DNA from: Rhodoferax sp. TS-BS-61-7
GTDB taxonomy: Bacteria > Pseudomonadota > Gammaproteobacteria > Burkholderiales > Burkholderiaceae_C
Assembly: GCF_002943465.1 (NCBI RefSeq)
Contig: NZ_PTQY01000001.1
Coordinates: 62,001 to 126,000, forward strand
Length of the DNA stretch: 64,000 nucleotides
Reading direction: 5' to 3'
The notes under the pieces were generated by a model. It was not told where the DNA came from, searched no databases, and saw nothing but the letters and a program-made list of their open reading frames with translations. How positions within the stretch are numbered: position 1 is the first letter of the stretch; each line of letters begins with the position of its first letter. Below, piece after piece: positions 2,005-60,239 of this stretch. A program made the translations under genes and the position numbers.

Positions 2005-2062
2005 GCTCCTAAATTAGGAGCTGTTTGCGCAATATCCATAAGGGTTGGAGGCCAATTAGGCC
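2005..2062 (+). repeat. Dispersed ~60-bp repeat, copy A (intergenic)
   Basis: Begins with the palindrome gctcctaaattaggagc, followed by tgcgcaatatcc and a right arm gttggaggcc. Its right half forms one arm of the glcB terminator. The left end is nearly identical to the copy inside proA at 38111. Confidence 0.8.
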
Positions 2063-2076
2063 TTCAACCCTTTTTT
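2040..2076 (+). terminator. Rho-independent terminator of glcB
   Basis: AAGGGTTGGAGGCC (2040-2053) pairs along its whole length with GGCCTTCAACCCTT (2059-2072), with one G-U pair. The loop is aatta, and the T run reaches 2076. The left arm lies within repeat copy A. Confidence 0.85.
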
Positions 2077-2135
2077 GTCCGGTAAATCCCTGCTTTTCGG
2101 CGCTTCAGTGCCACAGCCCCGCCCTAGCATGGCGC

Positions 2136-2663
2136 ATGATCCGGATCTTCATTGGTTATGACCCGCGCGAAGCCGTGGCTTACCACGTATGTGCCAACAG
2201 CATCGTGCGGCACGCACGGCAGCCCGTGGCCATCACCCCGCTGGCGCTGCACACCCTGCCCGACGAGAGCAAAGCCGTGATGTGTGTGCAACACGACTAC
2301 AAAACCAAGGCCCAGGGCAAGTACCTGGGCTCCAAAAACCAGGACTACCCGCGCAAAAACTGGTCCAGCGTGGTGCTATGGAACTGCGGCCACCCGGCCA
2401 ACCGCGTGGTGACGCCCGCGTTTGTAGAGAACGGCAGCGGCGCCCAGCTGCACCGCTTTACCTGGCTGGCTGACGAACTCATAGGCGCGCTACCGCGCGA
2501 ATGGAACTGGCTGCCACAGGAGCTAGGCCCCAACCCCGACGCCAAACTGCTGCACTGGACGCTGGGCACCCCCTGCTTCCACGAATACGCCGATGACCCC
2601 ATGGCTGCCGAATGGCACCGCGAACGCCTGCTGGCCGACTACTCACAACAACGCCATGGCTGA
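2136..2663 (+). CDS. Glycosyltransferase-like protein, apparently internally shortened
   Basis: The 175-residue product starts MIRIFIGYDPREAVAYHV and continues with KAVMCVQHDY, YPRKNWSSVVLWN and LLHWTLGTPCFHEY. These are landmarks of a small bacterial glycosyltransferase family whose members, as I recall them, run to about 230-250 residues. Between the SITPL-like segment (residues 28-34) and KAVMCV (from about residue 43) the family normally has about 50 residues, including a DxD-type metal/nucleotide-sugar motif. Here only a few residues bridge the gap. The frame is intact, so it looks like an in-frame deletion, or a divergent subfamily. An open frame extends back to 2025, but ATG 2136 matches family starts. 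It overlaps the next gene by 8 bases. Activity is doubtful without the DxD. Confidence 0.7.
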   Translation: MIRIFIGYDPREAVAYHVCANSIVRHARQPVAITPLALHTLPDESKAVMCVQHDYKTKAQGKYLGSKNQDYPRKNWSSVVLWNCGHPANRVVTPAFVENGSGAQLHRFTWLADELIGALPREWNWLPQELGPNPDAKLLHWTLGTPCFHEYADDPMAAEWHRERLLADYSQQRHG

Positions 2664-4185
2664 GGCCACGCCGGGCCTGGACCACGCACTGGCCGGTGAC
2701 CAGTTTCTGGCCCACGGGGAATTTGCACAGGCGCTGGACGCTTATGCCCAGGCGCTGGAAGCGCAGCCCCAGCAGGTGTACTGGCGTTTTTTGGCTGGCG
2801 AATCGCTGTTCCACCTGGGCCGTTATGCCGACTGTGTGGCCCTGCTGCAGGACCTGGACCCGGGCAACGACCAGACCCTGGCCATTGAACATGCGCTGAC
2901 CCTGGGCCGCGCCCTGCAGCTCACCGGGCAAACCACCGCCGCGGAGATGCAGCTCATCAAGGCCTTCATGCTGGACCCCGGCCATGAGGAAGCGGCCTAC
3001 AACCTGGGCGTGTTCTACGAACAGGCGGGCCTGCCCGAACAGGCCGTGACCTTTTTGCAAGCCGCCGCCCAGCGCCACCCCCAGTCGGTGCGCCTGCACT
3101 ACAACCTGGGCAGCAGCCTGGCCCAGTGCGGGCAGACGGCTGCGGCCGAATCCGCATTGCTTGCCACCCTGGCGCTGCAACCCAACCATATAGACGCGCA
3201 CCACAACCTGGCCTTGCTTTGCCTGCGCCAAGGCAAGCTCGCACAGGGCTGGCAACACTACGCTTGGCGCTTCAACCGCCATGCCCACGAAGGCGCACCC
3301 GCGCACTGGGTGCCAAACACCCCAGAGCTGCCCGCCGACTTGCACGGCCACACCGTGCGGGTACAGGGGGAGCAAGGCATTGGCGATGAACTGTTTTTTA
3401 TGCGCTACCTGCCCGCCTTGCAGGCGCGTGGCGCGCAGGTGCACTACCAGCTGTGCAACACCAAGCTGGCGCCCCTGCTCAGCCAGCCCGCGCTTGCATC
3501 GCTCGTGCAGACCCCCGACACACCAGCCTCCATCCGGCTACTGGTCGGTGACCTGCCCTTGGCCCTGGGCGGACCACACGCCCCAACCTGCCCCGTGGCC
3601 GTGCCACTACAAGCCAGCGCCGCCGTGCGCGCACGCCTGCAACAGCAGTACCCGCTGTTGGCCAGCCCGCGCCGCAAGCTGGGCCTGGCCTGGCGCGCAG
3701 GCACGACGCAAGCCCAGCCCCAGGGTTTTGCCACCCAGCGCTGGCTGCAAAAGTCCGCCCCGCTGGACAGCCTGCTGGATGTACTGGCAGCACTGGACGT
3801 GGAGGTGGTGGTCTTGCAGCGGGGGCTGCAGCCCAATGAGTGGGCGCAAGTGCAAGCACGTTTAGGTGCCGACCGCGTACTGAACGCGAGCACCTGCGAC
3901 CAGGACCTGAACGAGCTGCTGGGCCTGCTCTCTTGTCTGGACGGGCTGGTAGGCGTGAGCAACACCAATGTGCATCTGTGCGCAGGGCTAGGTATCGGCG
4001 GGGACGTGCTGGTGCCTGCGCCCACAGAATTTCGCTGGCAAGAGGAAGGCTCCCCCTCGCCCTGGTTTCCCGGTTTTGCGGTACACCGGCAAACCGCCAG
4101 TGCCCCAGACGCTGGGTGGCAAGCCCCCATGGCGGCGCTGGCCGCATCGCTGCAAGCGCGCTACGGCGTGGCCCAGCGACAGTAG
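2656..4185 (+). CDS. TPR-repeat protein with C-terminal glycosyltransferase-like domain
   Basis: The 509-residue protein has TPR units over roughly the first 210 residues (recurrent A-x-x-x-L-G-x-x-L and Y-N-L-G patterns). A GT9/GT41-like region follows: VRVQGEQGIGDELFFMRYLP, LGLAWRAGT, and a terminal DGLVGVSNTNVHLCAGLG motif typical of the nucleotide-sugar-binding half of heptosyltransferase/OGT-like proteins. Such fusions are thought to glycosylate proteins or assemble surface sugars; the substrate is unknown. ATG 2656 lies 8 bases inside the preceding glycosyltransferase, suggesting translational coupling. Its 3' end overlaps the convergent CYTH gene by 25 bases. Confidence 0.85.
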   Translation: MAEATPGLDHALAGDQFLAHGEFAQALDAYAQALEAQPQQVYWRFLAGESLFHLGRYADCVALLQDLDPGNDQTLAIEHALTLGRALQLTGQTTAAEMQLIKAFMLDPGHEEAAYNLGVFYEQAGLPEQAVTFLQAAAQRHPQSVRLHYNLGSSLAQCGQTAAAESALLATLALQPNHIDAHHNLALLCLRQGKLAQGWQHYAWRFNRHAHEGAPAHWVPNTPELPADLHGHTVRVQGEQGIGDELFFMRYLPALQARGAQVHYQLCNTKLAPLLSQPALASLVQTPDTPASIRLLVGDLPLALGGPHAPTCPVAVPLQASAAVRARLQQQYPLLASPRRKLGLAWRAGTTQAQPQGFATQRWLQKSAPLDSLLDVLAALDVEVVVLQRGLQPNEWAQVQARLGADRVLNASTCDQDLNELLGLLSCLDGLVGVSNTNVHLCAGLGIGGDVLVPAPTEFRWQEEGSPSPWFPGFAVHRQTASAPDAGWQAPMAALAASLQARYGVAQRQ

Positions 4186-4628
4186 GGGTGCGCGGCCAGG
4201 TTGGAGTTGAAGTAACGCGCATCCTGCGTCACCTCGTCACCCAGCCAGTCGGGCCGCACAAAGGCTTGGTCTTCGGACTCCAGCTCCACCTCGGCCACGA
4301 CCAGCCCGGCGTTATCGCCGGCAAACACATCCAGCTCCCAGCGCGTGCCCGCGTGGTCCAACAGATAGCGGGTTTTTTCGACCAAAGGGCCATCACACTG
4401 CGCCAACAGGGCTTCTGCGTCAGCCAGGGGAATGGGGTACTCAAACTCGGCACGTGTCGCGCCCACACTCACCCCTTTGATGGTGAGAAATGCGGCCTCG
4501 CCCGCAATACGCACGCGCACTGTGCGGGCCTTGTCCCGGTTCAAGTAGCCCTGGCGATAGGGCACGCCGGGTGTCTCGCGCCAAGGCTGGCCCTTGACCA
4601 AAAATTTACGTTCGATTTCCACGCCCAT
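4161..4628 (-). CDS. CYTH-domain phosphatase (inorganic triphosphatase-like)
   Basis: The 155-residue protein has the CYTH signature EIERKFLV at residues 4-11, then YLNRDKARTVRVRI, AFLTIKG, FEYPIP, LVEKTRYLL, WELDVFAGDNAGLVVAEVEL and the FVRPDWLG tail. These are the acidic and basic strands lining the triphosphate tunnel of the CYTH/triphosphate tunnel metalloenzyme fold. Members usually hydrolyse tripolyphosphate or other triphosphates with a divalent metal. The length matches single-domain bacterial members. It is convergent and overlapping with the TPR gene and stands alone on its strand. The substrate is inferred from the family. Confidence 0.88.
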   Translation of the reverse strand: MGVEIERKFLVKGQPWRETPGVPYRQGYLNRDKARTVRVRIAGEAAFLTIKGVSVGATRAEFEYPIPLADAEALLAQCDGPLVEKTRYLLDHAGTRWELDVFAGDNAGLVVAEVELESEDQAFVRPDWLGDEVTQDARYFNSNLAAHPYCRWATP

Positions 4629-4680
4629 GGGTTTTGCTTTCCTTTGCCAAACAGCAGGCGCTGGCTACACTGTGGACACC

Positions 4681-4905
4681 ATGTCCATGCCACGCTCCAC
4701 CACCCCTGAAGTGTGCCCGCTGTGCGGCCAAGGCAACCAATGCGCCATGGAAATGGAGCGCAGCACCGGCCAAAAGCAACCGCCTTGCTGGTGCACCCAA
4801 GCCAGCTTCAGCGCAGAACTGTTGGCCAGCGTGCCCGCGGCCGACCAGGGAAAGACCTGCATCTGCGCTGCCTGCGCCGCCCGCTCACTCCACCCGGTGC
4901 AATGA
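4681..4905 (+). CDS. Cysteine-rich CWC-family small protein
   Basis: The 74-residue protein shows CPLCGQGNQCAME near the N-terminus, CWC in the centre and CICAACAA near the C-terminus. This arrangement fits the small Cys_rich_CWC family of presumed metal-binding proteins of unknown role. ATG 4681 is chosen because the cysteine motif starts 11 residues later; the upstream open frame is antisense to the CYTH gene. The CYTH start at 4628 is divergent, 52 bases away. The 3' end overlaps the next, convergent gene by 21 bases. Confidence 0.75.
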   Translation: MSMPRSTTPEVCPLCGQGNQCAMEMERSTGQKQPPCWCTQASFSAELLASVPAADQGKTCICAACAARSLHPVQ

Positions 4906-5214: not shown

Positions 5215-5283
5215 GGGCCTCGTGGTGGTCTTGCCTGCACTCTACCGCATACCGGCGCAACAATCACGCGGCACAATACCCCC

Positions 5284-6777: not shown

Positions 6778-6781
6778 CCGA

Positions 6782-7936: not shown

Positions 7937-7960
7937 GAGGCCCTGCGGCACAATGGCCGC

Positions 7961-10224: not shown

Positions 10225-10364
10225 CCCACAAAGTCTGGTGCCCCTTCCCGGTCAGCCGCGTTGGCCTCTGTGCCAAAAGTCTGTTCGAAGTATGTACAAA
10301 ACAGCTACTTACCCCGCAGCGCTCTCACGCGGCACCCGCATTTGCCATTCACAAGAGAATCTAA

Positions 10365-10422
10365 GCCATATTGGCACCTAGCACACGCGGATATTGCGCA
10401 AGCAGCTACTAAGTAAATAGCA
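10365..10422 (-). repeat. Dispersed repeat, copy B (intergenic)
   Basis: On the minus strand it reads gctatttacttagtagctg, cttgcgcaatatccg and cgtgtgctaggtgccaatat. It fills most of the 199-base gap between the HEPN-like gene and the GMC oxidoreductase stop. The remainder of the gap (10225-10364) shows nothing else I can name. Confidence 0.75.
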
Positions 10423-10423
10423 C

Positions 10424-12025
10424 TCAGTCCATCGCTTTCTGCGCCCCCTTAATCAAATCCGCCGCCTTCTCCGCAATCATGATGGTCGGTGCGTTGGTAT
10501 TGCCGCTGACCACGCGGGGCATGATGGAGGCATCCACCACGCGCAGGCCTTGGATACCGCGCACGCGCAACTCGTGGTCCACCACATCCATTGGCCCCTT
10601 GCCCATGCGGCAGGTGCCTACCGGGTGGTAGACGGTGTCGGCGTTGTCGCGGATGAACTGTTCGATCTCGAAGTCGTTGCGCGCAGCCGCTGAGCGCGGG
10701 CCTTCTTTGCCAGCCAGCGCTGCCAGCGCCGGCTGCTGCAGCACAGTGCGCATGAGTTTGAAGCCGCGCACCAGGCGTTCCACGTCATCCCGCTCGCCCA
10801 GAAAGTTTGGGTCTATCAGCGGCGCCTCCATCGGGTCTTTGCTGGCCAGGCGCACGCTGCCGCGGCTGTAGGGGCGCAGCAAACACACGTGGCACGAATA
10901 ACCATGGCCCAGCACCGTGCTGCGGCCGTGGTTCACCAGCTTGGCAATGGCGAAGTGGAACTGCAAATCGGGGGTGCGCTCACCGGGCTGGCTTTTGATG
11001 AAGCCACCGGCCTCGGCAAAGTTGGTGGTCAATATGCCGGTGCGCTGCTTGCGCCACTCGAAGATGCCGCGCACGGCATTGGCCAAGCCCTTGAACGAAA
11101 TACCAAAGGTTTCGGTCAGGTACGGCGCGTTCACCACCTGCACCACATCCACATGGTCGTGCAGGTTTTGGCCCACACCCGGCAGATCGTGCAGCGTGGC
11201 AATGCCTTTTTCCACCAGATGCTGGTGCGGGCCAATGCCCGACAGCATGAGGATCTGCGGCGACTGCAGCGCGCCCGCACTTAGCAGCACCTCGCGGCTG
11301 CAGCGCAGCTCTTTCATCTCGCCCTCGTGCAGAAACTGCACGCCCACGGCGCGCTTGTGCTCCAGCAGGATGCGCGTGGTGTGCGCGCCGGTAAACACCT
11401 GCAGATTGGGCCGCCCGCGGTTTGGCGTGAGGTAACCCTTGGCGGCGCTGAAACGCTCGCCGTTTTTGTGCGTCACCTGGTAGACGCCCACACCCTCTTG
11501 GCTGGCGCCGTTGAAGTCGGGGTTGAGTGGGTAACCCGCCTGCTGGCCGGCCTGCACAAACACCGGGCCCAGGCGGTTGGGCGTGGTCAGGTCCTGCACA
11601 TGCAGGGGGCCGCCCTGGCCGTGGAAGGCATCGGCGCCACGTGCGTTGTCTTCGGCCTTTTTGAAGTAAGGCAAAACCTCGTCGTAGCTCCAACCGGGGT
11701 TGCCCTCTGCGGCCCAGCTGTCGTAGTCCTCACGCTGGCCACGGATGTAGATCATGGCGTTGACCGAGCTGGAGCCGCCCAGCACCTTGCCGCGTGGCTG
11801 GTAGCCGCGCCGCCCGTTCAGGCCGGGCTGGGCGGTGGTGTCGAACTTCCAGTTGGCATCGCCATTTTTGGCCAGCACGGCCAGCCCCGCAGGACAGTGG
11901 ATCAGCACACTGGTGTCGGCCGGGCCGGCTTCCAGCAGGGCCACGGTTACGGCGGGGTCCTCGCTCAGGCGGGCGGCCAGCACACAGCCAGCCGAGCCAG
12001 CGCCAATGATGATGTAGTCGAACAC
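10424..12025 (-). CDS. GMC-family FAD oxidoreductase (choline/alcohol dehydrogenase-like)
   Basis: FAD-dependent oxidation of an alcohol. The Rossmann FAD motif YIIIGAGSAGCVLAARL stands at the very N-terminus. GMC signature 1 is GKVLGGSSSVNAMIYIRG, and signature 2 lies at SAGALQSPQILMLSGIG. The catalytic His/Asn pair sits in YHPVGTCRMG and NTNAPTIMIAEKAADLI. Length (533 residues) is usual for BetA/AlkJ relatives. An ATG lies at 12040, but GAGGAGA sits 7-12 bases upstream of the GTG at 12025, which gives the normal family start FDYIIIGAG, so GTG is chosen. It diverges from ohrR. No betaine genes are nearby, so the substrate is open. Confidence 0.92.
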   Translation of the reverse strand: MFDYIIIGAGSAGCVLAARLSEDPAVTVALLEAGPADTSVLIHCPAGLAVLAKNGDANWKFDTTAQPGLNGRRGYQPRGKVLGGSSSVNAMIYIRGQREDYDSWAAEGNPGWSYDEVLPYFKKAEDNARGADAFHGQGGPLHVQDLTTPNRLGPVFVQAGQQAGYPLNPDFNGASQEGVGVYQVTHKNGERFSAAKGYLTPNRGRPNLQVFTGAHTTRILLEHKRAVGVQFLHEGEMKELRCSREVLLSAGALQSPQILMLSGIGPHQHLVEKGIATLHDLPGVGQNLHDHVDVVQVVNAPYLTETFGISFKGLANAVRGIFEWRKQRTGILTTNFAEAGGFIKSQPGERTPDLQFHFAIAKLVNHGRSTVLGHGYSCHVCLLRPYSRGSVRLASKDPMEAPLIDPNFLGERDDVERLVRGFKLMRTVLQQPALAALAGKEGPRSAAARNDFEIEQFIRDNADTVYHPVGTCRMGKGPMDVVDHELRVRGIQGLRVVDASIMPRVVSGNTNAPTIMIAEKAADLIKGAQKAMD

Positions 12026-16774: not shown

Positions 16775-17824
16775 ATGCACAGCACTGCGGGCACAGCCCT
16801 TCACCCCTTTGAATCCCTGACCCCCGACCTGGTGCTGGACGCACTGGACAGCGTGGGCCTGCGCGGCGATGGCCGCCTGACCGCCCTGTCGTCGTACGAA
16901 AACCGCGTCTACCAGGTGCAGCTCGAAGACGGCGCGCCGGTGGTGGCCAAGTTCTACCGGCCCGCACGCTGGACGGATGCGCAGATCCAGGAAGAACACG
17001 ACTTTGCCGCCGAGCTGATGGCTGATGAAATTCCGGCCGTGGGGCCACTGGTGTTGGAGGGTGCCACGCTTCACCACTTTGGCGGCTTTGCGTTTTCGGT
17101 AAGCCCACGCCGTGGCGGCCGCCCGCCCGAGCTGGACGACGGCGAGGTGCTGGAGTGGATAGGCCGCTTTCTGGCCCGCATCCACGCCGTGGGCGCCAAG
17201 CGCCCGTTTGTGCACCGCCCGGCGCTGGATGTGCAGACCTTTGCGATTGAGCCCATGCAGTGGCTGCTGGCCAACAACATGGTGCCGCTGGACGTGCAAA
17301 GTGCCTGGACCACCGCCTGCCAAAGCGCTATAGATTTAATAGCTGCTCGCGCAGATATGGCGGGCGCTACAGGCCAAAATAAGTCCAATTCCAGCGGTAT
17401 ACTCCAGTTGCGCCTGCATGGCGACTGCCACCCCGGCAACATTCTGTGGACGCCCACCGATGTGGCCGCCGCTGCCGGCCCCGGCCCGCACTTTGTGGAC
17501 CTGGACGACGCGCGCACCGGCCCCGCCGTGCAAGACCTGTGGATGCTGCTGAGCGGCGACCGCCAGCAACAAACCCGCCAGCTCGGCATGCTGGTGGACG
17601 GCTACGAGCAGTTCCGCGAATTTGACCGTGCCGAGCTGGCCCTGATCGAGCCGCTGCGCACGCTGCGCCTGATCCACTACAGCGCCTGGCTGGCCCGGCG
17701 CTGGAGTGACCCGACCTTCCCCGCTAACTTTCCATGGTTTGGCAGCAGCGACTACTGGAAGGGCCAGGTGCAGATGCTGCAAGACCAGTGCGAAGCCATG
17801 CAGGAAGACCCGCTGGTCGTATGA
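16775..17824 (+). CDS. srkA: Stress response kinase A (YihE/RdoA), with repeat-derived insert
   Basis: APH-fold Ser/Thr kinase that counters stress-induced death in E. coli. Signatures: LSSYENRVYQVQLEDG, VAKFYRP, FAFSVSPRRGGRPPELDD, catalytic LRLHGDCHPGNILW, metal-binding FVDLDDARTGPAVQDLWMLL, and the NFPWFGSSDYW tail. Its 349 residues exceed the 328 of E. coli. Most of the excess is at residues 184-203, AIDLIAARADMAGATGQNK, encoded exactly by a copy of the dispersed repeat just before the catalytic loop. The frame continues cleanly, so the kinase is probably active. Its stop overlaps the next start (ATGA). Confidence 0.93.
   Translation: MHSTAGTALHPFESLTPDLVLDALDSVGLRGDGRLTALSSYENRVYQVQLEDGAPVVAKFYRPARWTDAQIQEEHDFAAELMADEIPAVGPLVLEGATLHHFGGFAFSVSPRRGGRPPELDDGEVLEWIGRFLARIHAVGAKRPFVHRPALDVQTFAIEPMQWLLANNMVPLDVQSAWTTACQSAIDLIAARADMAGATGQNKSNSSGILQLRLHGDCHPGNILWTPTDVAAAAGPGPHFVDLDDARTGPAVQDLWMLLSGDRQQQTRQLGMLVDGYEQFREFDRAELALIEPLRTLRLIHYSAWLARRWSDPTFPANFPWFGSSDYWKGQVQMLQDQCEAMQEDPLVV
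17325..17383 (+). repeat. Dispersed repeat, copy C (inside srkA, sense)
   Basis: Contains gctatagatttaatagctg, gctgctcgcgca, ggcgggcgct and aggccaaaat. It reads through srkA in frame as an Ala-rich insert. Confidence 0.85.
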
Positions 17825-27545: not shown

Positions 27546-27602
27546 ATCATGGCAGAAATCACAATGCCCCCGCAAACCAGATTGACTTGTGGCGCGTCAA
27601 TT

Positions 27603-27664
27603 AGCTATCAATTTAATAGCTGCTTGCGCATATTCCACGAAGGCTACAGCCCTATTTCGCATTA
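27603..27664 (+). repeat. Dispersed repeat, copy E (overlaps PAP2 gene end)
   Basis: Reads agctatcaatttaatagctg, cttgcgcatattcc and ggctacagccctatttcgc. It supplies the last residues (Asn-Ala-Lys) and the TAG stop of the minus-strand PAP2 gene. Confidence 0.8.
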
Positions 27665-28467
27665 AATTTGCCGCGCAGCACACGCCAGGCGTACGCCAGC
27701 AGGCTCCCCATGGCCACCACCGCCAGCACCTGCTGCGCGACGTGGTTTTCCGCAAAATCCAGCTCCTCGGTGAGCAGGTGGTAAACCGACAAGGCCACCA
27801 GCGCCGCGGCCATGCGCAGCCACCAGGCCGAGGGCGCAAACTGTCTTTCGGGCAAACGCATCCACAGCTGGTGCCCCAGCAAACCCGAGAGCAGGCCCAG
27901 GCTGGCACCCACCGCCACATCGCCCGGCCAATGCGCGCCCACGGCAATGCGCGACACGCCGGCACCAGCCGCCAGCACCAGCAGCCACCAATGGCGGCGG
28001 CGCTGGGCCACAGTGAGTGCAAAGTAAATGCCAGACGCCACCGCAAACGCCGTCAGCGTGTGGCCCGATGGCATGGACACGTTGTGCAGCAGCTCGCCCA
28101 CCACCCGCATCTGCGTGTTGTCCACCACCGCAGCGGGGCGCGGGCTTTCAATGAAAAACTTGCCGGTGCGGGCAAACAACACCGCAAAGGGCGCCGCGCA
28201 CAGCCACGCCACCATCAGGCGGGGCGCCAGCACCAGCAAGGGCGCGGTCACCGCCAACAGGCCCCAGCCATTGCCCAGCAGCGACAGGCCGGTCCAAAAC
28301 TCCGCAGCCAGCGGCGCGCACCACTGGTTGATGGTGATGAAGAGGCTCGGCTCCCACAGTTGCAGCCACAAGGGAGTGCCCAGCACAAAGATCACCAGCG
28401 GCCACCACCAGGTGCGGGCGGCGACCGGGCTGGCTAGGGCATGGGGCGTGGTGGGTGGGGTCAACAT
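27652..28467 (-). CDS. PAP2-family membrane phosphatase
   Basis: The 271-residue protein has canonical PAP2 motifs in order: KFFIESPRP (KxxxxxxRP), SMPSGHT (PSGH) and SRIAVGAHWPGDV (SRx5Hx3D), with about six hydrophobic spans. It probably dephosphorylates undecaprenyl pyrophosphate or phosphatidic acid on the periplasmic side. ATG 28467 is chosen; an in-frame TTG at 28479 would overlap the upstream stop. It lies 8 bases after the GT39 gene, suggesting joint work in lipid-carrier or envelope glycan metabolism. The end is formed by repeat copy E. Confidence 0.9.
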   Translation of the reverse strand: MLTPPTTPHALASPVAARTWWWPLVIFVLGTPLWLQLWEPSLFITINQWCAPLAAEFWTGLSLLGNGWGLLAVTAPLLVLAPRLMVAWLCAAPFAVLFARTGKFFIESPRPAAVVDNTQMRVVGELLHNVSMPSGHTLTAFAVASGIYFALTVAQRRRHWWLLVLAAGAGVSRIAVGAHWPGDVAVGASLGLLSGLLGHQLWMRLPERQFAPSAWWLRMAAALVALSVYHLLTEELDFAENHVAQQVLAVVAMGSLLAYAWRVLRGKFNAK

Positions 28468-32952: not shown

Positions 32953-34170
32953 TCAAGTGCCTGCAGGCTGGGTGCGGCCGTAGTGTTGCACCAAAAGCGC
33001 AATCCCGCCTGCCACCACGCCCCAAAACGCCGAACCGACTCCGGCTATTACGACGCCACTGAGCGTGACCAAGAAAGTGATGAGCGCGGCTTCACGGTGG
33101 GTGTCGTCTTTGAGCGCCGCCGACAGGGCGCCGCCAATGGTGCCCAACAAGGCCAGCCCTGCGATAGCGGCCACCAGCTCCTTGGGGAAGGCGGTGAGCA
33201 CACCGGTGATGGCGGCGCCAAACAGGCCAATCACCACATAAATAGCGCCGCAGGCCGCCGCCGCGGTGTAGCGCCGCGCGGGGTTGCTGTGTGCCTCGGG
33301 CCCCATACAAATGGCGGCGGTGATGGCGCTGAGGTTGAGCGCAAACGCGCCAAACGGCGCCAGCAGCAGCGTGACCAGGCCCGTGAGGGTGATGACCTTG
33401 GAGATGGGAATACCGGCGTCACCGCCCTCTGCGCGGCGGTCGGCATAACCCGCGGCCTGGATGGCAGCCACACCGGGCAGGTTTTGCGAGGCCATGGTGA
33501 CGACGAACAGTGGCAGCGACATGCTGATGAACGCGGCCAGTGAAAAGGTAGGCGTGACCCAGACCGGCATCGTCAAGCCCAATTGGATGTTAGCGCCCGT
33601 GAATTCTGCGCGAGCAGCTACAAAAACAATAGCAACCAACAACGTCAGCGGCACCGCGTAACGGGGCACCAGGCGCTTGCCCAGCAGGTAGGTCAGCAGC
33701 ATCAGCACCACCAGCGGCAGCGCCGTCTGCGCCGCGGCAAAACCCGACAGGCCAAACCGTGCCAACACTCCCGCCAGCAGGGCCGAGGCCAGCGCCAGCG
33801 GAATGCGGTTCATGACGCGCTCGAACCAGCCGGTGGCACCTGCCACGGTAATGAGTACCGCACACAGAATGAACGCGCCCACGCCTTCGGCCATGCCAAA
33901 ACCGCCGGCCGTGGCGGCCGTGGCCAGCACCGCAGCGCCGGGCGTGCTCCAGGCCACCATGACCGGTTTTTTAAGCCACAGCGAGGGAATGAGCGAACAC
34001 AAGCCCATGCCAATGCCCAGCGCCCACATCCACGAGGCCACCATGGCCGGCGTGGCGCCCAGCGCGAGCGCAGCCTGGAAGACGATGGCCACCGAACTGG
34101 TGAAGCCCACCAGCACGGCTACAAAACCGGCCGTGAAGGCCGAGAGACTCAGGTCTTTGAAAAAATGCAT
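32953..34170 (-). CDS. benE: Benzoate/H+ symporter family protein, with repeat-derived segment
   Basis: The 405-residue protein has about eleven hydrophobic spans and BenE-family landmarks: FVAVLVGFTSSVAIVFQAA, SLWLKKPVMVAWSTPGAAVLA, NRIPLALASALLAGVL, FVVTMASQNLPGVAAIQAAGY, PFGAFALNLSAITAAICMG and FPKELVAAIAGLALLGTIGGAL. ATG 34170 gives the family start. Residues 180-198 (AIVFVAARAEFTGANIQ) are encoded by a recognisable copy of the dispersed repeat in sense orientation. No benzoate catabolic genes are near, so the substrate may differ. Confidence 0.88.
   Translation of the reverse strand: MHFFKDLSLSAFTAGFVAVLVGFTSSVAIVFQAALALGATPAMVASWMWALGIGMGLCSLIPSLWLKKPVMVAWSTPGAAVLATAATAGGFGMAEGVGAFILCAVLITVAGATGWFERVMNRIPLALASALLAGVLARFGLSGFAAAQTALPLVVLMLLTYLLGKRLVPRYAVPLTLLVAIVFVAARAEFTGANIQLGLTMPVWVTPTFSLAAFISMSLPLFVVTMASQNLPGVAAIQAAGYADRRAEGGDAGIPISKVITLTGLVTLLLAPFGAFALNLSAITAAICMGPEAHSNPARRYTAAAACGAIYVVIGLFGAAITGVLTAFPKELVAAIAGLALLGTIGGALSAALKDDTHREAALITFLVTLSGVVIAGVGSAFWGVVAGGIALLVQHYGRTQPAGT
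33578..33633 (-). repeat. Dispersed repeat, copy F (inside benE, sense)
   Basis: The minus strand reads gctattgtttttgtagctg, gctgctcgcgca and cacgggcgct, then caattgggc. It uses the same reading frame as the srkA and leuS copies. Confidence 0.75.
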
Positions 34171-34281: not shown

Positions 34282-34315
34282 GCCCCCGACCCGCGCAGCG
34301 GCGGAGCGTGGGGGC
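34282..34315 (-). repeat. GC-rich inverted-repeat element, copy 1
   Basis: The element is bounded by gccccc and gggggc, able to pair. The minus-strand core cccccacgctccgccgct is followed by gcgcgggtcg. It matches the element at 40272 with one difference in the core. It lies in the 149-base gap between kup and benE. Confidence 0.6.
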
Positions 34316-37752: not shown

Positions 37753-39075
37753 TCAGCCGCGCACTTCGCCCTCGCCCAGCACCACGTACTTCAAGGACGT
37801 CAGCCCCTCAATGCCCACCGGCCCGCGGGCGTGGAACTTGTCGGTGCTGATGCCGATTTCGGCGCCCAGCCCGTACTCAAACCCATCGGCGAAGCGCGTG
37901 CTGGCATTCACCATCACACTGGCCGAATCCACCTCGCGCAAAAAGCGCTGGGCGTGCACATGGTTGGTGGTCAGGATGGCGTCGGTGTGGTGGCTGCTGT
38001 ACTGGTTGATGTGGGCAATGGCCTCGTCCACACCGGCCACCACTTTCACGCTGACGATGGGTGCGAGGTACTCCTCGTACCAGTCCTGCTCGGTAGCAGG
38101 CACCAGCTTTGCTCCTGAATTAGGAGCTATTTGCGCAATATCCACGGGGGCTAGAGGCAGATTTGACGTCAAAATGGCCAATGCTTCGGGGTCGCAGCGC
38201 ATCTCCACGCCCTTGGCCGCATAGACCGCGCCGATGCGCGGCAAAAACGCGGCCGCCACGCCCCGCGCCACCAGCAGGCCTTCGGTCGCGTTACAGGGGC
38301 TGTACTTGTTGGTCTTGGCGTTGTCCGCCACCTTGACGGCCATGGCGATGTCACAGGGGTCGTCCACATAGGTGTGGCAGTTGCCGTCCAGGTGTTTGAT
38401 GACGGGCACCTTGGCATCGCGGCTGATGCGCTCGATCAGCCCCTTGCCGCCGCGCGGAATGATCACATCCACAAACTGCGGCATGGCAATGAGCTGCCCC
38501 ACCACTTCGCGGTCGGTGGTCTGCACCAGCTGCACCGCGTCGGCAGGCAGGCCACTCTCGGTTAAAGCTTGCTGTACCAACCGAGCCAGCGCCTTGTTGG
38601 AGTCAATTGCCTCCGAGCCACCACGCAAGATGCAGGCATTGCCGCTCTTGATAGACAGGCTGGCCGCCTCGATCGTTACATTCGGCCGGCTCTCGAAAAT
38701 CATGCCAAACACGCCAATCGGCACCCGCATCTGGCCCACGCGGATGCCGCTGGGCTGCTGCTTCATGCCGATGATCTCGCCAATCACGTCCGCCATGGCC
38801 GCCAGCTGCTCGCAGCCTTCGGCACAGGTTTCCAGCACCTTTGGCGTCAATTTCAGCCGGTCCACCATGGGCGCGGCCAGGCCGTTGGCGATGGCACGCT
38901 CAATGTCCTTGGCATTGTCCACCTGCAAGGCCGCCGTGTTTTCGCGCAGCAGCCTTGCCAAGGCCCGAAGCGCTACGTTTTTAGTAGCTGCTGGTGCACG
39001 CGCCATAAGGGCGGATGCCACTTTGGCCTGAGAACCGAGGGCCAGGGTGTATTCGGTGGTGTTGGTCGCGTTCAT
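37753..39075 (-). CDS. proA: Gamma-glutamyl phosphate reductase, with repeat-derived insert
   Basis: Second step of proline synthesis: NADPH reduction of glutamyl-5-phosphate to the semialdehyde. The 440-residue protein has ALDH-like motifs: [55 protein letters not shown], catalytic-cysteine segment [12 protein letters not shown] and [19 protein letters not shown]. It exceeds E. coli ProA (417 residues) by about 23. Residues about 302-322 ([19 protein letters not shown]) are encoded by an antisense copy of the dispersed repeat. The frame and downstream motifs are intact. ATG 39075 (MNATNTTEY) is chosen. Confidence 0.94.
38111..38172 (+). repeat. Dispersed repeat, copy G (inside proA, antisense)
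   Basis: The plus strand reads gctcctgaattaggagctat, ttgcgcaatatcc and cgggggctagaggcagattt. It is almost identical to intergenic copy A at 2005. proA reads it on the opposite strand. Confidence 0.85.
38970..39015 (+). repeat. Possible degenerate repeat copy (inside proA 5' region)
   Basis: gcgctacgtttttagtagctg followed by ctggtgcacgcgcc and ataagggcgg resembles copy I at 53793. The encoded residues ([16 protein letters not shown]) are plausible ordinary ProA sequence, so this may be chance. Confidence 0.35.
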
Positions 39076-40271: not shown

Positions 40272-40317
40272 GCCCCCACGCTCCGCCGCTACGCGGGTCG
40301 CTGCCCCCCCAAGGGGG
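40272..40317 (+). repeat. GC-rich inverted-repeat element, copy 2
   Basis: The core cccccacgctccgccgct followed by acgcgggtcg matches copy 1 at 34282 apart from one base. It ends in ccccccc-aa-ggggg, another short hairpin. It fills most of the gap between rocF and holA. Confidence 0.6.
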
Positions 40318-40369
40318 TGCGTTTCAGCTTGGGACGGCCCGGCGCTGAAACTAAAGCCCCAGGCTGCGC

Positions 40370-43492: not shown

Positions 43493-46273
43493 TTACACCA
43501 CCACATTGACCAAGCGGCCGGGCACCACGATGACCTTCTTGGCCGTGGCACCAGCCGCGTGGCTCAGGAAGGCCTCGCTGGCCAGGGCGGCGGCTTCGAT
43601 GGCCTCCTTGCTGGCGCCAGCAGGCACACGCACCGCGCCGCGCAGCTTGCCGTTGACCTGCAGCACCAGCTCGATCTCGTCCTGCACCAGGGCAGAGGCA
43701 TCGACCAAGGGCCAGGGCGCATCCAGCAGGTCGCCCAGCGTGCCGGCATAGCCCAGCTCAGACCAGAGCGCGTGCGCCAGGTGCGGTGTGGCCGGGTACA
43801 GCACGCGCAGCAAAATGCTGAAGCCTTCGATCAGCGCCACCTGGGCGCCCGCGCTGTCCAGGGCCTTGAAGCCCTCCAGCGCATTGATCATCTTCATGGT
43901 GCCGGAGACCACGGTGTTGTACTGCATGCGCTGGTAGTCAAAGTCCACCTGCTTGAGCACGGTGTGCATCTCCAGGCGCAGGGCTTTGGCCTCTTTGCCA
44001 AATTCAACGTCTTTTAAGCTGCTAGCCCCCGCCACACTTGCGCGAGCAGCTACGGAATCCATAGCAGATAACTTGTAGCCAAAGTTCCAGACGCGGCGCA
44101 AGAAGCGGTAGCTGCCTTCCACTGCGGCGTCGTTCCACTCCAGCGTGGCCTCGGGCGGTGCGGTGAACATGGTGTAGATGCGGGCCGTGTCGGCGCCGTA
44201 TTTGGCGATCAGCGCCTGCGGGTCCACACCGTTGTTCTTGGACTTGGACATGGTGCCCACGCCCTCGTAATCGATGGCAGTGCCCACGGGCAACCGGCCA
44301 TCGCCGCTGTCGGCTTCGTTCTTGAGCTTGGCGCCCACCACCTTGCCGGCTTCGTCCAGTACATGCTCCACGTCATGCGGCCAGAAGTAGTCCTTGCCAC
44401 CCTTGGCGGTGCGGCGGCTGTAGATGTGGTTCAGCACCATGCCCTGTGTCAGCAGCTTGGTGAAGGGTTCGTCCACCTTCACCAGCCCCAGGTCGCGCAT
44501 CACCTTGGTCCAGAAGCGGGCGTACAGCAAGTGCAGGATGGCGTGCTCGATGCCACCGATGTACTGGTCCATGCCGCTGCCACCGGTAGCCAGCTGTTGG
44601 TCCCGCATCCAGTAGTCGGTGCCGCCGGCCACCATGGCCTCTGCGTTCTTGGGATCGCAGTAGCGCATGAAGTACCAGGACGAATCCACAAAGGTATCCA
44701 TGGTGTCTGTCTCGCGCCGCGCGGCCTTGCCGCACACCGGGCAGACCACGCCGGCGTGGAAGCCTTCGTGCTTGTGCAGCGGGTTGCCCGAGCCATCGGG
44801 CACGCAGTCCTGCGGCAGCACCACGGGCAAGTCTTTTTCTGGCACGGGCACCGCGCCGTGTTCCTCGCAATGGATGATGGGGATGGGTGTGCCCCAATAG
44901 CGCTGGCGGCTCACGCCCCAGTCACGCAGGCGCCAGGTGGTTTTCTTCTCGCCCAGGCCTTTGGCGGCCAGGTCGGCTGCCACCGCGTCCACGGCGGCCT
45001 TGTAGGCCAGGCCGTCGTACTTACCGGAGTTAACGGCAATACCGTGCCCTTTAATGCCGTACCACTCTTGCCAACGCTCCGTAGTGAAGCCATCGCCAAC
45101 AACGCCTTGACCCGACGTGTTGACTACGCGAGCCTCAACGACTTGCTTCATGGGCAAGTCATATTTATTGGCAAACGCGAAGTCGCGCTCGTCGTGCGCG
45201 GGCACGCCCATCACGGCGCCATCGCCATAGCCGATGAGCACGTAGTTGCCCACCCACACCGGCACTTGCGCGCCGGTCAGTGGATGCGTGACAAACAGGC
45301 CCGTAGGCTGGCCTTTTTTCTCCTGCGTGGCCAGCTCGGCCTCGGTGGTGCCACCGTGCTTGCACTCTTCAATGAAAGCGGCCAGCTCGGCGTTGCCCAC
45401 CGCCGCGTGCGCGGCCAACGGGTGCTCGGGCGCCACGGCGCAGAAGGTCACGCCCATGATGGTGTCGGCGCGCGTGGTGAACACATACATGCGGCCGTCG
45501 CCAATCAGCGCGCCAGTCGTGTCCTTAATGTCGTGCGGAAACGCAAAGCGCACACCTTCGCTCTTGCCAATCCAGTTTTCCTGCATCAAGCGCACGCGGT
45601 CGGGCCAGCCGTTCAGCGTGGCTTTCTCGTTGCCCATCTGCACATGGTCCAGCAGCTCTTGTGCGTAGTCAGTGATCTTGAGGTAGTAGCCGGGGATCTC
45701 GCGCTTCTCCACCACGGCGCCGGTGCGCCAGCCCTTGCCGTCAATCACCTGCTCGTTGGCCAGCACGGTCTGGTCCACCGGGTCCCAGTTCACCACCTGG
45801 GTCTTGCGATAAGCAATGCCTTTTTCCAGCATCTTGAGGAACAGCCACTGGTTCCACTTGTAATAGTCCGGGTCGCAGGTGGCGACCTCACGGCTCCAGT
45901 CGATGGCCAAGCCCATGGCCTGCATCTGGCCCTTCATGTAGGCGATGTTCTCAAAAGTCCACTGGGCCGGTGGCACCTTGTTCTTCAGCGCGGCGTTCTC
46001 GGCCGGCAGTCCAAACGCGTCCCAGCCCATGGGCATGAGCACGTTGTAGCCGTTCATGCGCAGGTAGCGCGTGAGCATGTCGTTGATGGTGTAGTTGCGC
46101 ACATGGCCCATGTGCAGCTTGCCGCTGGGGTAGGGCAGCATGGAGCAGGCGTAGAACTTCTTTTTGCCCTCGTCCTCGGTCACGCGGTAGGCGTTCTGGC
46201 CGTTCCATAAGGGCTGGGACCAATGGTCCTGGGCCGATTTTTCTACGTCGAGGTGCTGGTACTTGTCTTGCAT
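43493..46273 (-). CDS. leuS: Leucyl-tRNA synthetase, with repeat-derived insert
   Basis: The 926-residue class I synthetase has HIGH-type HMGHVRN in [16 protein letters not shown], editing-domain [12 protein letters not shown] and [20 protein letters not shown] zinc-like [25 protein letters not shown] segment and KMSKS-type [11 protein letters not shown] follow. Residues about 736-752 ([17 protein letters not shown]), in the linker after [12 protein letters not shown], are encoded by a sense copy of the dispersed repeat. Known LeuRS sequences have only a short variable loop there. The gene is otherwise intact and presumably essential. ATG 46273 ([12 protein letters not shown]) is chosen. Confidence 0.97.
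44016..44067 (-). repeat. Dispersed repeat, copy H (inside leuS, sense)
   Basis: The minus strand reads gctatggattccgtagctg, gctgctcgcgca, and gcgggggctagcagctt. Same frame as the srkA and benE copies. Confidence 0.8.
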
Positions 46274-53792: not shown

Positions 53793-53853
53793 CAAGCCAA
53801 ATCGGGCCTCCGCCCTTATGGAATATGCGCAAGCAGCTATTATTTCGATAGCG
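53793..53853 (-). repeat. Dispersed repeat, copy I (between corA and mtnN)
   Basis: The minus strand reads gctatcgaaataatagctg, cttgcgcatattcc and aagggcggaggcccgatttg. It overlaps the last codons and TAA stop of mtnN and abuts the corA stop at 53790. Its gggc/gccc arm could serve as a weak bidirectional terminator. Confidence 0.8.
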
Positions 53854-54592
53854 TTTTGAGCAGATTTTCAACAATGCCCAGGGCGTACACACTCGCGACT
53901 TCCTGCACAAACGTGCGGAAGTCCCCATGGGCGGTGTCGTCCGCCCGGTCGGAGATGGTGCGCACCGCGGCAAACGGCACGTCGTAGTCGGCGCACACCT
54001 GGGCCACGGCGGCGCCTTCCATCTCCACCGCCAACGGCACATGGCCCGCCGCGCGGAGCTGCCCCACCAGCGCCGCCACTTCGGCAGCACTATTCACAAA
54101 ACGGTCCCCACTGGCGATCAGGCCGCGATGGACCACGGGAGCACGTCCCTGGTGGCGGATGCCGGCCAATGCGGCGTCGCTGGCCATCTGCAAGGCACCA
54201 CACAGATCCACATCCCCCGCAAACACGGCTTGGCCATACAGCGGAATCTCGTAACGCGGGAACAGCGGCGAGGCGTCCATGTCGTGCTGCAGATAAGACG
54301 TGCCCACCACCACATCCCCCACCTGCACACCGTCCCCCACACCCCCGGCCACACCGGTGAATACCACCCGATCCACGCCCAGATGGGCAATCAGCGCGGT
54401 GGCGGTGGTGGCGGCCGCCACCTTGCCAATACGCGACAGGGCCAGCACCACCGGTTGGCCCCACAAGTTGCCGCACCAGACCGTGCGCCCGGCCAGCACC
54501 ACGTCGCGCGCCCCCTGCATGTGCTGCAACAAACCGGCCTGCTCTTCGGCCAGGGCACTCAGGATGGCAATGGGGGCGGCAGTGACGGGCAT
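53840..54592 (-). CDS. mtnN: 5'-methylthioadenosine/S-adenosylhomocysteine nucleosidase
   Basis: Releases adenine from methylthioadenosine and S-adenosylhomocysteine. The 250-residue phosphorylase-fold protein has IAILSALAEEQAGLL, VVFTGVAGGVGDGVQVGDVVV, LIASGDRFVN, VEMEGAAVAQVC (substrate Glu) and AVRTISDRADDTAHGDF (catalytic Asp). ATG 54592 is chosen over TTG 54607. The last residues (Leu-Ser-Lys) and stop come from repeat copy I. Convergent with corA. Confidence 0.94.
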   Translation of the reverse strand: MPVTAAPIAILSALAEEQAGLLQHMQGARDVVLAGRTVWCGNLWGQPVVLALSRIGKVAAATTATALIAHLGVDRVVFTGVAGGVGDGVQVGDVVVGTSYLQHDMDASPLFPRYEIPLYGQAVFAGDVDLCGALQMASDAALAGIRHQGRAPVVHRGLIASGDRFVNSAAEVAALVGQLRAAGHVPLAVEMEGAAVAQVCADYDVPFAAVRTISDRADDTAHGDFRTFVQEVASVYALGIVENLLKTLSK

Positions 54593-54629
54593 AGGTGCAA
54601 CGTTCAAAAGACGTTAGCGTAGCAGGCAC

Positions 54630-54656: not shown

Positions 54657-54695
54657 CACACCAACCGCTTTGTAGCGGCCGGTGGCAACACCGTA

Positions 54696-56369: not shown

Positions 56370-56468
56370 GTCCTTGTCTCCATCCTCTTTTTTTAAACCC
56401 AACCCAGTATTTTCACGGTCCCGGGGGCGGCACATGTGTGTGCTTTCCCTAGGTTTTGTCGGCAGCAC

Positions 56469-57881: not shown

Positions 57882-57893
57882 CTTCAGGTCTCC

Positions 57894-59504
57894 TTACTTG
57901 CGGAACATGGCCAGCATGCGCTGGGTGACGGCAAAGCCGCCAAACATATTGATGGCGGTCAGCACAATGGCCGCCGCTGCCAGCCAGGTGATCAGGCTGT
58001 CCGGGCGCCCCACGGCACCGGCAATCGGCGAAATCTGCACCAGCGCACCGATGGCGATGATGCTGCTGATGGCATTGGTCACGCTCATCAACGGTGTGTG
58101 CAGCGCGGGCTTGACGTTCCACACCACCATGTAGCCCACAAAACAGGCCAACACAAACACCGTGAAGTGGCCCAGGAAGGCGGCAGGTGCGTAGCTGCCG
58201 ATGAGCCAGAACAGCACGGCCGCCACGGCCATCAGGATGGCCAGGCTCTTGGCCGACATGGGCTCGCTCGCACCGCCGTGGCCGTGCGCAGGCTTCTTCA
58301 CCGCCACGGGCGCTGCCTTAGCCGCAGCGGCAGGGGCCGCTGGCAGCTTGGGCGGGGGGGCCGGCCAGGTCACGCTGCCTTCCTTGATGACGGTCAGGCC
58401 GCGGATGGCGTCATCTTCCATATTGATGTTGGCCACACCGTCCTTGGCCTTGCACAGTTCCTCGCTGAGGCGGAACAGGTTGTTGGCATACAGGGTGGAC
58501 GACTGCTTGGACAGGCGGGAAGCCAGGTCGGTGTAGCCCACGATGGTGACACCGTGCTTCACCACGGCCTGGCCGGGCTCGGTCAGCTCGCAGTTGCCGC
58601 CCTGCTCGGCCGCCATGTCCACGATCACGCTGCCGGGCTTCATGGAACGCACCATCTCGGCGGTGATGAGCTTGGGTGCGGGTTTGCCGGGGATCAGCGC
58701 GGTGGTGATGATGATGTCGACCTCGCGGGCCTGCTTGGCGTACATGGCGCGTTGCGCTTGCTGGAAGCCCTCGCTCATGACCTTGGCGTAACCGCCGCCG
58801 CCGCCGCCTTCTTCCTCATAGTCCACCTTGACGAACTCGCCGCCCAGGGAAGTAACTTGGTCGGCCACTTCGGCGCGGGTGTCATTGGCGCGCACGATGG
58901 CACCCAGGCTGGCCGCGGTGCCGATGGCTGCCAAACCGGCCACGCCGGCGCCGGCGATGAACACCTTGGCCGGAGGCACTTTGCCCGCGGCCGTGATCTG
59001 GCCGTTGAAGAAACGGCCAAACGCGTTTGCGGCTTCGATGACCGCGCGGTAACCGCTGACGCCGGCCATGGACGTGAGCGCATCCATCTTCTGGGCACGG
59101 CTCAGGGTACGCGGTAGCGCGTCAATGGCCAGCACGGTGGCCTTGCGGGCCGCCAGCTGTTGCAGCAGATCGGGGTTTTGCGCGGGCCAGATAAAGCTGA
59201 TGAGGGTGCCGCCTTCACGCAGCAGGCCCACTTCGTCGCTGGAGGGGCCACGCACCTTGAAGACGATGTCGGACTGGGCCCAGAGCTCGACAGCCGTGGC
59301 CACCACCTCCGCGCCGGCAGCGCGGTAGCTGTCGTCGTCACAGTTGGCTAACGCCCCTGCGCCCGACTCCACACTGACCCGGAAGCCCAGCTTGATCAGC
59401 TTCTCCACAACTTCCGGAACCGTGGCAACGCGTTTCTCCCCAGGGAATATCTCCTTGGGAACACCAATACGCTGTCCTGTTTCAGTGGGAACACTGGTCT
59501 GCAT
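57894..59504 (-). CDS. pntA: NAD(P) transhydrogenase subunit alpha (fused form)
   Basis: The 536-residue protein has the NAD(H)-binding dI domain ([66 protein letters not shown]). A hexaglycine stretch follows EEE near residue 230, a variable loop. An Ala/Pro/Lys-rich linker and four C-terminal spans complete the E. coli-like fused arrangement. GAGGAG lies 8-13 bases before ATG 59504, which decides it over upstream codons. pntB follows. The 179-base gap to nudJ holds only promoter-type sequence I cannot define. Confidence 0.96.
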
Positions 59505-59683
59505 CAAGCAACTCCTCAACGTGGATGGGGCCTAGCCCTGGGGCGTGTTTCGCGGCGGTAAGGTTCGCGAAAGGTATCTGGGCGGCAACTTTAACTGAAT
59601 TTCCCTGCGCAACTGCCCGTCTGGCGCGGCGTGCGCAACGGCCCCGCGCAAAACAGCCCAACCTTGCATGCCCATAATCCCGC

Positions 59684-60181
59684 ATGACCCAACGATGGAA
59701 ACCCAGTGTGACGGTAGCCGCCGTCATTGAGCAGCAGGGCCGCTTCCTGCTGGTGGAAGAACACACGCCCGAAGGCCTGCGCCTGAACAACCCGGCCGGC
59801 CACCTGGACCCGGCGGAGTCGCCCGCTCAGGGTTGTTCCCGAGAGGTATTAGAGGAAACGGCCTATGCCTTCACGCCCACCTACCTGGTGGGCCTGTACC
59901 TGTCGCGCTTTCAGCGCCAGCGCGCCGATGTGCTGGAGGATGTGACCTACCTGCGCTTTGCCTACGCGGGCTCCCTGGGTGCCTTTGACGCGGCGCGCAC
60001 GCTGGACACCGGCATTGAGCGCACCGTGTGGCTAACCGCCGACGAACTGCGTGCCAGCCAGGACCGCCACCGCAGCCCGCTGGTGCTGCAGTGTATGGAG
60101 GACTACCTGCGTGGCCAGCGCTACCCGCTGGAGCTGGTGTATGCCGATGCCAGCATTTGGACCCCGGCCACATCGCTATAA
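59684..60181 (+). CDS. nudJ: NUDIX phosphatase NudJ-like
   Basis: The 165-residue hydrolase has the Nudix box GHLDPAESPAQGCSREVLEETAY (G-x5-E-x7-REVLEE), preceded by VTVAAVIEQQGRFLLVEEHT and followed by a YLRFAYAG strand. NudJ hydrolyses thiamine pyrophosphate-related and nucleoside di/triphosphates. It stands directly upstream of mnmA, as in E. coli and many proteobacteria. The stop codon TAA is the beginning of repeat copy J. Confidence 0.92.
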   Translation: MTQRWKPSVTVAAVIEQQGRFLLVEEHTPEGLRLNNPAGHLDPAESPAQGCSREVLEETAYAFTPTYLVGLYLSRFQRQRADVLEDVTYLRFAYAGSLGAFDAARTLDTGIERTVWLTADELRASQDRHRSPLVLQCMEDYLRGQRYPLELVYADASIWTPATSL

Positions 60182-60239
60182 AAACAGGAGCTGCTCGCGC
60201 AATACCAACGGGCTTCAAGGGCATTTTTGATACATAAAT
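60174..60239 (+). repeat. Dispersed repeat, copy J (between nudJ and mnmA)
   Basis: Reads cgctataaaaacaggagctg, ctgctcgcgcaatacc and ggcatttttgatacataaat. It provides the nudJ stop and lies 33 bases before mnmA, separating two genes usually close together. Confidence 0.8.

What the first reader, a model, noticed from the sequence alone, without database searches (positions are those of the whole stretch)
2005..60239. A ~60-bp dispersed repeat in at least ten copies, four of them inside intact genes
Copies at 2005, 10365, 17325, 20225, 27603, 33578, 38111, 44016, 53793 and 60174 share a layout: a short palindromic left end (gctat or gctcct ... rtagc/gagc), the core gctgctYgcgca or ttgcgca, an atatcc-type segment, and a right end near gggcttgaggcc followed by atttg. 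Four lie within srkA, benE, proA and leuS without breaking the frame. No transposase is present. This looks like a mobilised miniature element or selfish palindrome tolerated in essential genes such as leuS.
Basis: partly seen in the sequence, partly recalled or inferred. Interest (0 to 1): 0.75.

Follow-up and report, generated by a model that had tools for sequence, protein, structure and literature searches.

The report
Ancient 64-bp repeat inside bacterial genes
Several hundred copies of an old 64-letter DNA element are scattered through this bacterial genome, many lying in frame inside working genes, and they appear to belong to a resident transposase gene whose own end carries a related copy.

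Summary
The repeat is real. All ten reported copies match a model built from this genome, and an eleventh lies at 38970. The unit is 64 bp. The model finds 75 matches in 464 kb, roughly 650 per genome by extrapolation; the 14-mer core occurs 211 times against 0 for its reversal. Copies inside genes (31 of 71) sit in the one open frame of each orientation in 28 of 31 cases; the rest crowd gene ends. High copy numbers were seen only in one family, very unevenly. I found no sign of recent movement: the best pair among 72 copies is 84% identical, and leuS and srkA copies recur in other genera. The core changes three to four times more slowly than the rest of the unit, outside genes too. A tyrosine transposase of TIRYT/RAYT type, usually single-copy, carries a related copy between its stop codon and its terminal repeat in several genera. 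Best reading: an ancient, largely fossil REP-like family of that transposase with a DNA-constrained core. In one group of near relatives the transposase has lost catalytic residues, yet in the two tested the core stays constrained.

The parts
2003..2069 (+). element copy, downstream of a malate synthase G gene (38-1984)
   Evidence: 63.4 bits; gene name
10357..10423 (-). element copy directly after the stop of the gene at 10424-12025 (-)
   Evidence: 68.4 bits
17325..17391 (+). element copy inside srkA (16775-17824 +), sense, open frame
   Evidence: 61.5 bits
20225..20291 (+). element copy in a 51-bp convergent gap, overlapping the next gene's end
   Evidence: 67.1 bits
27602..27668 (+). element copy supplying the stop codon of the gene at 27652-28467 (-)
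   Evidence: 72.2 bits
33569..33635 (-). element copy inside benE (32953-34170 -), sense, open frame
   Evidence: 63.9 bits
38109..38175 (+). element copy inside proA (37753-39075 -), antisense, open frame
   Evidence: 71.9 bits; absent from the orthologue in G217 and G287
   Evidence: 31.9 bits
44001..44067 (-). element copy inside leuS (43493-46273 -), sense, open frame
   Evidence: 59.6 bits
53788..53854 (-). element copy in a convergent gap, supplying the stop codon of the gene at 53840-54592 (-)
   Evidence: 66.1 bits
60173..60239 (+). element copy supplying the stop codon of the gene at 59708-60181 (+)
   Evidence: 55.8 bits

Best explanation
A REP-like dispersed element family of Comamonadaceae, cognate to a resident, usually single-copy, vertically inherited HUH tyrosine transposase of the TIRYT/RAYT kind. 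Shown: the 64-bp family; high copy numbers in one family only; old, orthologously shared copies; in-frame residence in genes; slower evolution of the core; and a related copy between the transposase stop codon and its terminal repeat in several genera. Inferred: that the transposase once copied such units round the genome, as RAYTs are thought to do for REPs; that spread had largely ceased before the present species split; and that the core is now kept because a protein binds it, most simply the transposase itself.
For: Genome-wide excess; about 73 full or near-full matches in 464 kb. Orthologous sharing: 12 of 27 G331 copies at the same site with equal length in G217, 3 more within 23 nt; leuS and srkA copies in other genera. 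Core constraint: 13/288 and 10/284 changes against 63/389 and 42/367 elsewhere in the unit; outside genes 11/162 and 5/156 against 52/237 and 31/216. Transposase link: NF047646 match; model hits lying antisense across the transposase stop codon in 14 of 147 scanned loci, in five genera or more; a looser end motif in 31 of 78 named loci against 44 of 13,400 shuffles; more cores where the motif is present (median 92, n=32) than absent (median 7, n=16); the base after GCGC beside the transposase agrees with the majority of dispersed copies in 12 of 12 genomes with an intact gene.
Against: G270 (one contig, 84 cores) and G141 (128 cores) have no Y1_Tnp match; genomes with no cores keep an intact gene (G145, G229, G298, G332, G265, G284). 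Rich genomes without the end motif exist (G200, G294, G128, G142). The tetranucleotide of classical REPs, GTAG, is only partly kept. Nine genera-level comparisons are few, kinship was not corrected, and 31 of 71 copies lie inside genes, whereas most known REPs are intergenic. The unit as a whole is not more conserved than its flanks (0.81 against 0.86), and the core contrast inside genes is weak in one direction (5/128 against 11/151).
Confidence: 0.6

Rival explanations
1. The core is a genome-wide binding site for some other system (a nucleoid protein, or a DNA-uptake receptor as with DUS/USS), and copies are kept or spread by it; the transposase is only one of many genes with a copy at its end.
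For: Core constraint on DNA, in and out of genes; no strand bias; complete genome G270 with 84 cores and no Y1_Tnp; constraint persists where the transposase is broken.
Against: Weaker conservation extends over 64 bp, which suggests copying of a unit rather than sites arising by mutation; SrkA and LeuS linkers grew relative to outgroups; the copy beside the transposase recurs in several genera. No uptake or binding data; competence genes were not searched.
Confidence: 0.25
2. An active MITE-like or selfish palindrome now spreading.
For: Copy number varies from 0 to 250 exact cores within one genus; copies lie in genes without breaking them.
Against: Best pair 84% identical among 72 copies here; no pair above 79% in pieces of G331, G120 and G243 (one identical pair in G015 extends through its flanks); orthologous sharing; decayed copies at the same sites in copy-poor genomes; no terminal repeats with target duplication seen.
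Confidence: 0.08
3. Chance resemblance of a common protein helix (A-x-x-L-I-A-A-x-A) rather than a DNA element.
For: In SrkA the element-encoded helix lines up without a gap with the helix of copy-poor relatives.
Against: 40 of 71 copies are not inside a gene, and copies in genes are read in both orientations with different peptides; srkA copies of G004 and G243 keep the non-helix tail at DNA level.
Confidence: 0.02

Closest known systems
REP elements with RAYT (TnpA-REP) transposases (PMC3733652, PMC6006769, passages and named sections read)
   Same: Hundreds of short imperfect palindromes per genome, crowding convergent and tandem gene ends, supplying stop codons, some lying in frame inside genes; a Y1 tyrosine transposase gene flanked by a related copy.
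   Different: No fixed GTAG head (positions 15-18 are R, T/G, A, G); the unit is 64 bp with an extra left arm and an A/T-rich tail; 31 of 71 copies inside genes; mostly singletons.
TIRYT, terminal-inverted-repeat tyrosine transposases, subclass 2.1 (PMC6006769 section 20 read; PMC3733652 passages)
   Same: The transposase here has HFH, WE and YIDLNP motifs and is flanked by GGGACA and GGGTCAG repeats fitting the published GGGGWSAS motif.
   Different: Subclass 2.1 is reported without REP-like sequences nearby; here a dispersed family has a relative wedged between gene and terminal repeat.
Rickettsia palindromic elements (RPE; passages of PMC3733652, rest recalled)
   Same: In-frame residence in protein genes, old and shared by orthology.
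   Different: No sequence relation was tested; different phylum-level host; a transposase link is proposed here.
BRE, betaproteobacterial repeat element (PMC3110155, passages read)
   Same: Repeat reported from Comamonadaceae and Bordetella, mostly intergenic, some copies inside genes.
   Different: BRE is about 90 bp, 69% G+C, often tandem, at most 29 copies per genome; this unit is 64 bp, 34-64% G+C per full copy and dispersed.

Membership tests
REP / RAYT system | hundreds of dispersed short copies per genome | tested here: met
REP / RAYT system | GTAG or GTGG tetranucleotide 0-2 nt before a hairpin | tested here: not met
   Only part of the copies read GTAG there; column counts
REP / RAYT system | stable imperfect hairpin supported by compensating changes | tested here: inconclusive
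   No covariation within this genome for the left arms; between genera consensus arms change in step (GCGCTTG/CAAGCGC in G015, G120; GCGCAGGT/ACCTGCGC suggested in G243)
REP / RAYT system | Y1 tyrosine transposase gene flanked by a copy | tested here: met
   but absent in G270 and G141
REP / RAYT system | transposase binds or cleaves the element | not testable with these tools
   needs protein
TIRYT (for the transposase gene) | Y1 transposase flanked by GGGGWSAS terminal repeats | tested here: met
   end repeat pattern found downstream in 76 of 78 named loci; upstream side not surveyed
MITE | terminal inverted repeats and target-site duplication at insertions | tested here: not met
   no such ends in the aligned copies; no clean empty site found
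BRE | about 90 bp, high G+C, tandem arrays | tested here: not met
   sequence identity itself not testable
DNA uptake sequence | short motif recognised in DNA uptake | not testable with these tools
   core constraint is compatible; no uptake data, competence genes not searched

The most novel reading that the evidence does not exclude
In these bacteria a transposase has become a resident DNA-binding protein, and hundreds of its old target sites, many inside genes, are kept by selection as working sites. In G217, G331, G341, G354, G355 and G326 the protein has lost both the catalytic tyrosine and the following asparagine (in G299, G327, G317 and G348 the asparagine only), so it could bind but not move DNA; in G331 and G217, the two tested, the site core is still constrained.
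Probability: 0.2. Interest if true: 0.85.

Novelty: new variant of a known kind. Interest (0 to 1): 0.6.

Why it matters
It ties a widespread but obscure group of tyrosine transposases (TIRYT, subclass 2.1, reported without REP-like partners) to a large repeat family that lives in frame in genes such as leuS. Because copies are shared by orthology for long periods while the core resists change, and because one group of species carries a catalytically broken transposase, the old question whether such repeats are mere fossils or kept for a function becomes directly testable by binding and gene deletion in ordinary environmental bacteria.

Tried and rejected
Rfam scan of the window: no family at gathering score. 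RNA-hairpin reading: no covariation within this genome and no sense-strand bias, so set aside. Copy number explained by presence of any Y1_Tnp gene: no, the gene is near-universal (54 of 61 genomes; 46 of 50 chosen genomes). Plasmid and phage collections: no match with one copy as query, a weak test for a diverged 67-bp query. Clean insertion boundaries were not obtained: in SrkA, LeuS and ProA the net gain is below the 22 codons of the unit where I could measure it (except SrkA of G121, +19, whose element DNA I did not print in full); I do not know why.

Literature searches that showed no description of this element: core string (0 papers), Comamonadaceae with repeat terms, RAYT/REPIN/Comamonadaceae, REP-associated tyrosine transposase with genus names, domesticated transposases. 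The library lacks most subscription papers. Seen: PMC3110155, PMC3733652, PMC2817692 as passages; PMC6006769 as passages plus sections 13 and 20; all others only as search listings.

Limits. Genes come from my own simple gene finder. One search used 71 of the 75 hits (the two weakest full hits and two partial antisense hits were left out); one search used 72 of 75. Searches used 51 of the 65 hits (the weaker 14 were not entered). Searches run both directions over mostly the same copies, so the two lines are not independent. In one search, 4 of 56 loci gave no reading frame to my pattern, and the end motif is a loose regular expression written after seeing the sequences. In one search the base beside the transposase was read by eye for 20 genomes, those with a readable core among the segments printed; G121 (52% T) is borderline. 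NCBIfam cut-off is passed by this genome's transposase only; those of G217 (42.7) and G312's second (69.5) are below 80. Counts of genomes with 20 or more cores were made by me from the table.

Full report
What is there. Aligning 36 copies found by a core regex gives a unit from 14 bases before to 49 bases after the start of the core, 64 bp, with the sequence outside it at background. In words: a GCTAT arm, seven variable A/T-rich bases, ATAGC or GTAGC, then TGCTTGCGCA, a TATCCACG-like stretch, GGGCTAGAGGCC and an ATTTG-like tail ending in AAA. TAGCTGCTYGCGCA occurs 211 times in the 4.19 Mb genome and its reversal 0 times. A covariance model from 35 copies finds 75 matches in 464 kb, roughly 650 per genome by extrapolation. 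The whole-genome run scored only 150 of 2,654 candidates, and 150 matches were listed.

Where copies sit. With my own gene finder, 31 of 71 copies lie inside genes and 40 do not. Inside genes the orientation is even, 15 sense and 16 antisense, and the frame nearly fixed: 13 of 15 sense and 15 of 16 antisense copies use the one frame of each orientation that has no stop in the consensus; the three exceptions score 20.9 to 37.0 bits. Outside genes 15 copies lie in convergent gaps (4.5 kb of sequence in all), 21 in tandem gaps (23 kb) and 4 in divergent gaps (10 kb). In the window the copies at 27602, 53788 and 60173 supply a neighbour's stop codon. This is what selection against damage would leave, and it resembles what is printed for REPs (PMC3733652, passages).

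Range. With the 13-mer TAGCTGCTNGCGC, 41 of 299 genomes of the family, in 21 of 141 genera, hold 20 or more cores, up to 449 (counted by me). The reversed control reaches 49 in two genomes that hold at most one true match, so only high counts are read. Within the window's genus the counts run from 0 to 250 over 61 genomes. Of 291 genomes of other families of the order none exceeds 4. Titles of loci related to the transposase name Rhodoferax, Curvibacter, Variovorax, Acidovorax, Polaromonas and Hydrogenophaga among others, so I take the family for the Comamonadaceae group; the window's own record is unnamed.

Age. Among 72 copies of this genome the mean pairwise identity is 57% and the maximum 84%. 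Pieces of G331, G120 and G243 show no pair above 79%; G015 has one pair identical over 80 nt including flanks, which I take for a segmental duplication. Between G331 and G217 (92% identical around leuS), of 27 G331 copies 12 are at the same site with equal length, 3 within 23 nt, one (in proA) is 42 nt shorter in G217, 4 sites are longer in G217, one maps oddly and 6 lack a flank. Of the window's 11 copies, by my reading 7 are at the same site in G217, 6 in G125 and 3 in G287. G125 and G287 hold only 8 and 5 exact cores, and their shared copies score 21 to 52 bits: they have decayed.

leuS and srkA. In leuS the core is intact in six of 30 aligned genomes of the genus and recognisable in others, while several copy-poor genomes keep a similar peptide but other codons. 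Element-like leuS segments recur in other genera, for example G121, G141 and G004. Outgroups G005, G096 and G177 have linkers 9 to 12 residues shorter, but G018, with one core, is as long as this genome, and rich G010 and G072 have lost the element codons. In srkA element-like DNA is at the same place in G243, G255 and G004. The linker has 25 residues in eight of eight outgroup proteins (five other families plus G005, G046, G096), 24 to 31 in seven copy-poor relatives, 35 in this genome and 30 to 44 in five rich genomes. So the insertions look older than the genera, and the net gain is smaller than the 22 codons of the unit in the cases I measured. That is unexplained.

Constraint. For orthologous copies in G331 and G217, taking only bases equal to the consensus in the genome where the copy was called, strongly conserved positions changed in 13 of 288 and 10 of 284 cases, the other positions in 63 of 389 and 42 of 367 (16 copies each way). 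Positions 3-7, 16-20 and 40 show no change. Outside genes alone the figures are 11/162 and 5/156 against 52/237 and 31/216, with non-coding flanks near 0.15; inside genes the contrast is 2/126 against 11/152 and 5/128 against 11/151, the last not significant. The unit as a whole is not more conserved than its flanks (0.81 against 0.86). So the core, not the unit, is held at the DNA level. The GCTAT..RTAGC arms do not covary within the genome, so pairing as such is unsupported there; between genera the consensus of a second arm pair seems to change in step.

The transposase. The genome has one Y1_Tnp match, a REP-associated tyrosine transposase by NCBIfam (84.9 bits, cut-off 80). The gene is present in 54 of 61 genomes of the genus, mostly once, and in 46 of 50 chosen genomes of the family. 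Its HFH, WE and YIDLNP motifs and its flanking GGGACA and GGGTCAG repeats fit the TIRYT group, subclass 2.1, for which PMC6006769 (section 20) reports no REP-like sequences nearby. Between the stop codon and the downstream repeat lies, in antisense, a relative of the element: in this genome GATAGCTGCTTGCGCAGTATCCATAAGG fused to the repeat. The model recognises such copies across the stop codon in 14 of 147 scanned loci, including G120, G243, G146 and G255 of other genera; the weakest two have E-values of 0.010 and 0.018. A looser end motif is present in 31 of 78 named loci against 44 of 13,400 shuffles; genomes with the motif hold more cores (median 92, n=32) than those without (median 7, n=16), kinship not corrected. 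The base after GCGC beside the transposase agrees with the majority of dispersed copies in 12 of 12 genomes with an intact active site and in 4 of 8 with a changed one. A second transposase type has copies on both sides in G312 (L183) but none in G309 (L228).

Against the link. G270, one contig with 84 cores, and G141 with 128 have no Y1_Tnp match; six genomes with no cores keep an intact gene; four rich genomes lack the end motif.

A broken transposase. In ten genomes among the near relatives of this one the active-site asparagine is histidine, and in six of them (G217, G331, G341, G354, G355, G326) the tyrosine is also phenylalanine; this genome's own gene is intact; G128 and G304 have lost the tyrosine only; 79 of 80 named loci are intact. 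The core constraint above was measured in two of the double mutants. Either the constraint has another cause, or the protein is kept as a binder; I give the second 0.2.

Verdict. A real, large, ancient repeat family of a known general kind (REP-like) in a new variant: linked by position to a TIRYT, with 31 of 71 copies inside genes and a constrained core. In-frame intragenic REPs as such are already in print (PMC3733652).

Noticed in passing
window 34287-34315 and 40272-40349: A second, G+C-rich repeat of about 75 bp (one inverted pair 97% complementary over 29 nt) has many further matches in G217 and some in G125. It may be the BRE of PMC3110155; not tested.
   Followed up: no
L097 (G315 leuS): The leuS of G315 carries a different in-frame stretch, VSSLPPEGALAARGGPSP, possibly a reading of that second repeat.
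   Followed up: no
L188, L189, L190, L192, L242, L246; L191, L234, L243, L244: Transposase orthologues that lost the catalytic tyrosine and asparagine (first six) or the asparagine only (last four), while HFH and W are kept.
   Followed up: partly
L183:1334-2282 (G312): A second type of REP-associated transposase gene has element copies on both sides, 61.9 and 46.9 bits.
   Followed up: partly
G226:C1:1278277-1278313; G341:C30:19683-19719: Two cores face each other about ten bases apart, giving long near-perfect palindromes.
   Followed up: no
G015: The genome with most cores (449) also has 20 Y1_Tnp matches, several of them identical in score.
   Followed up: no
G348, G317, G354, G355, G326 leuS: DNA alignments to this leuS break around query 1473-1679, suggesting a further variable or inserted stretch.
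   Followed up: no
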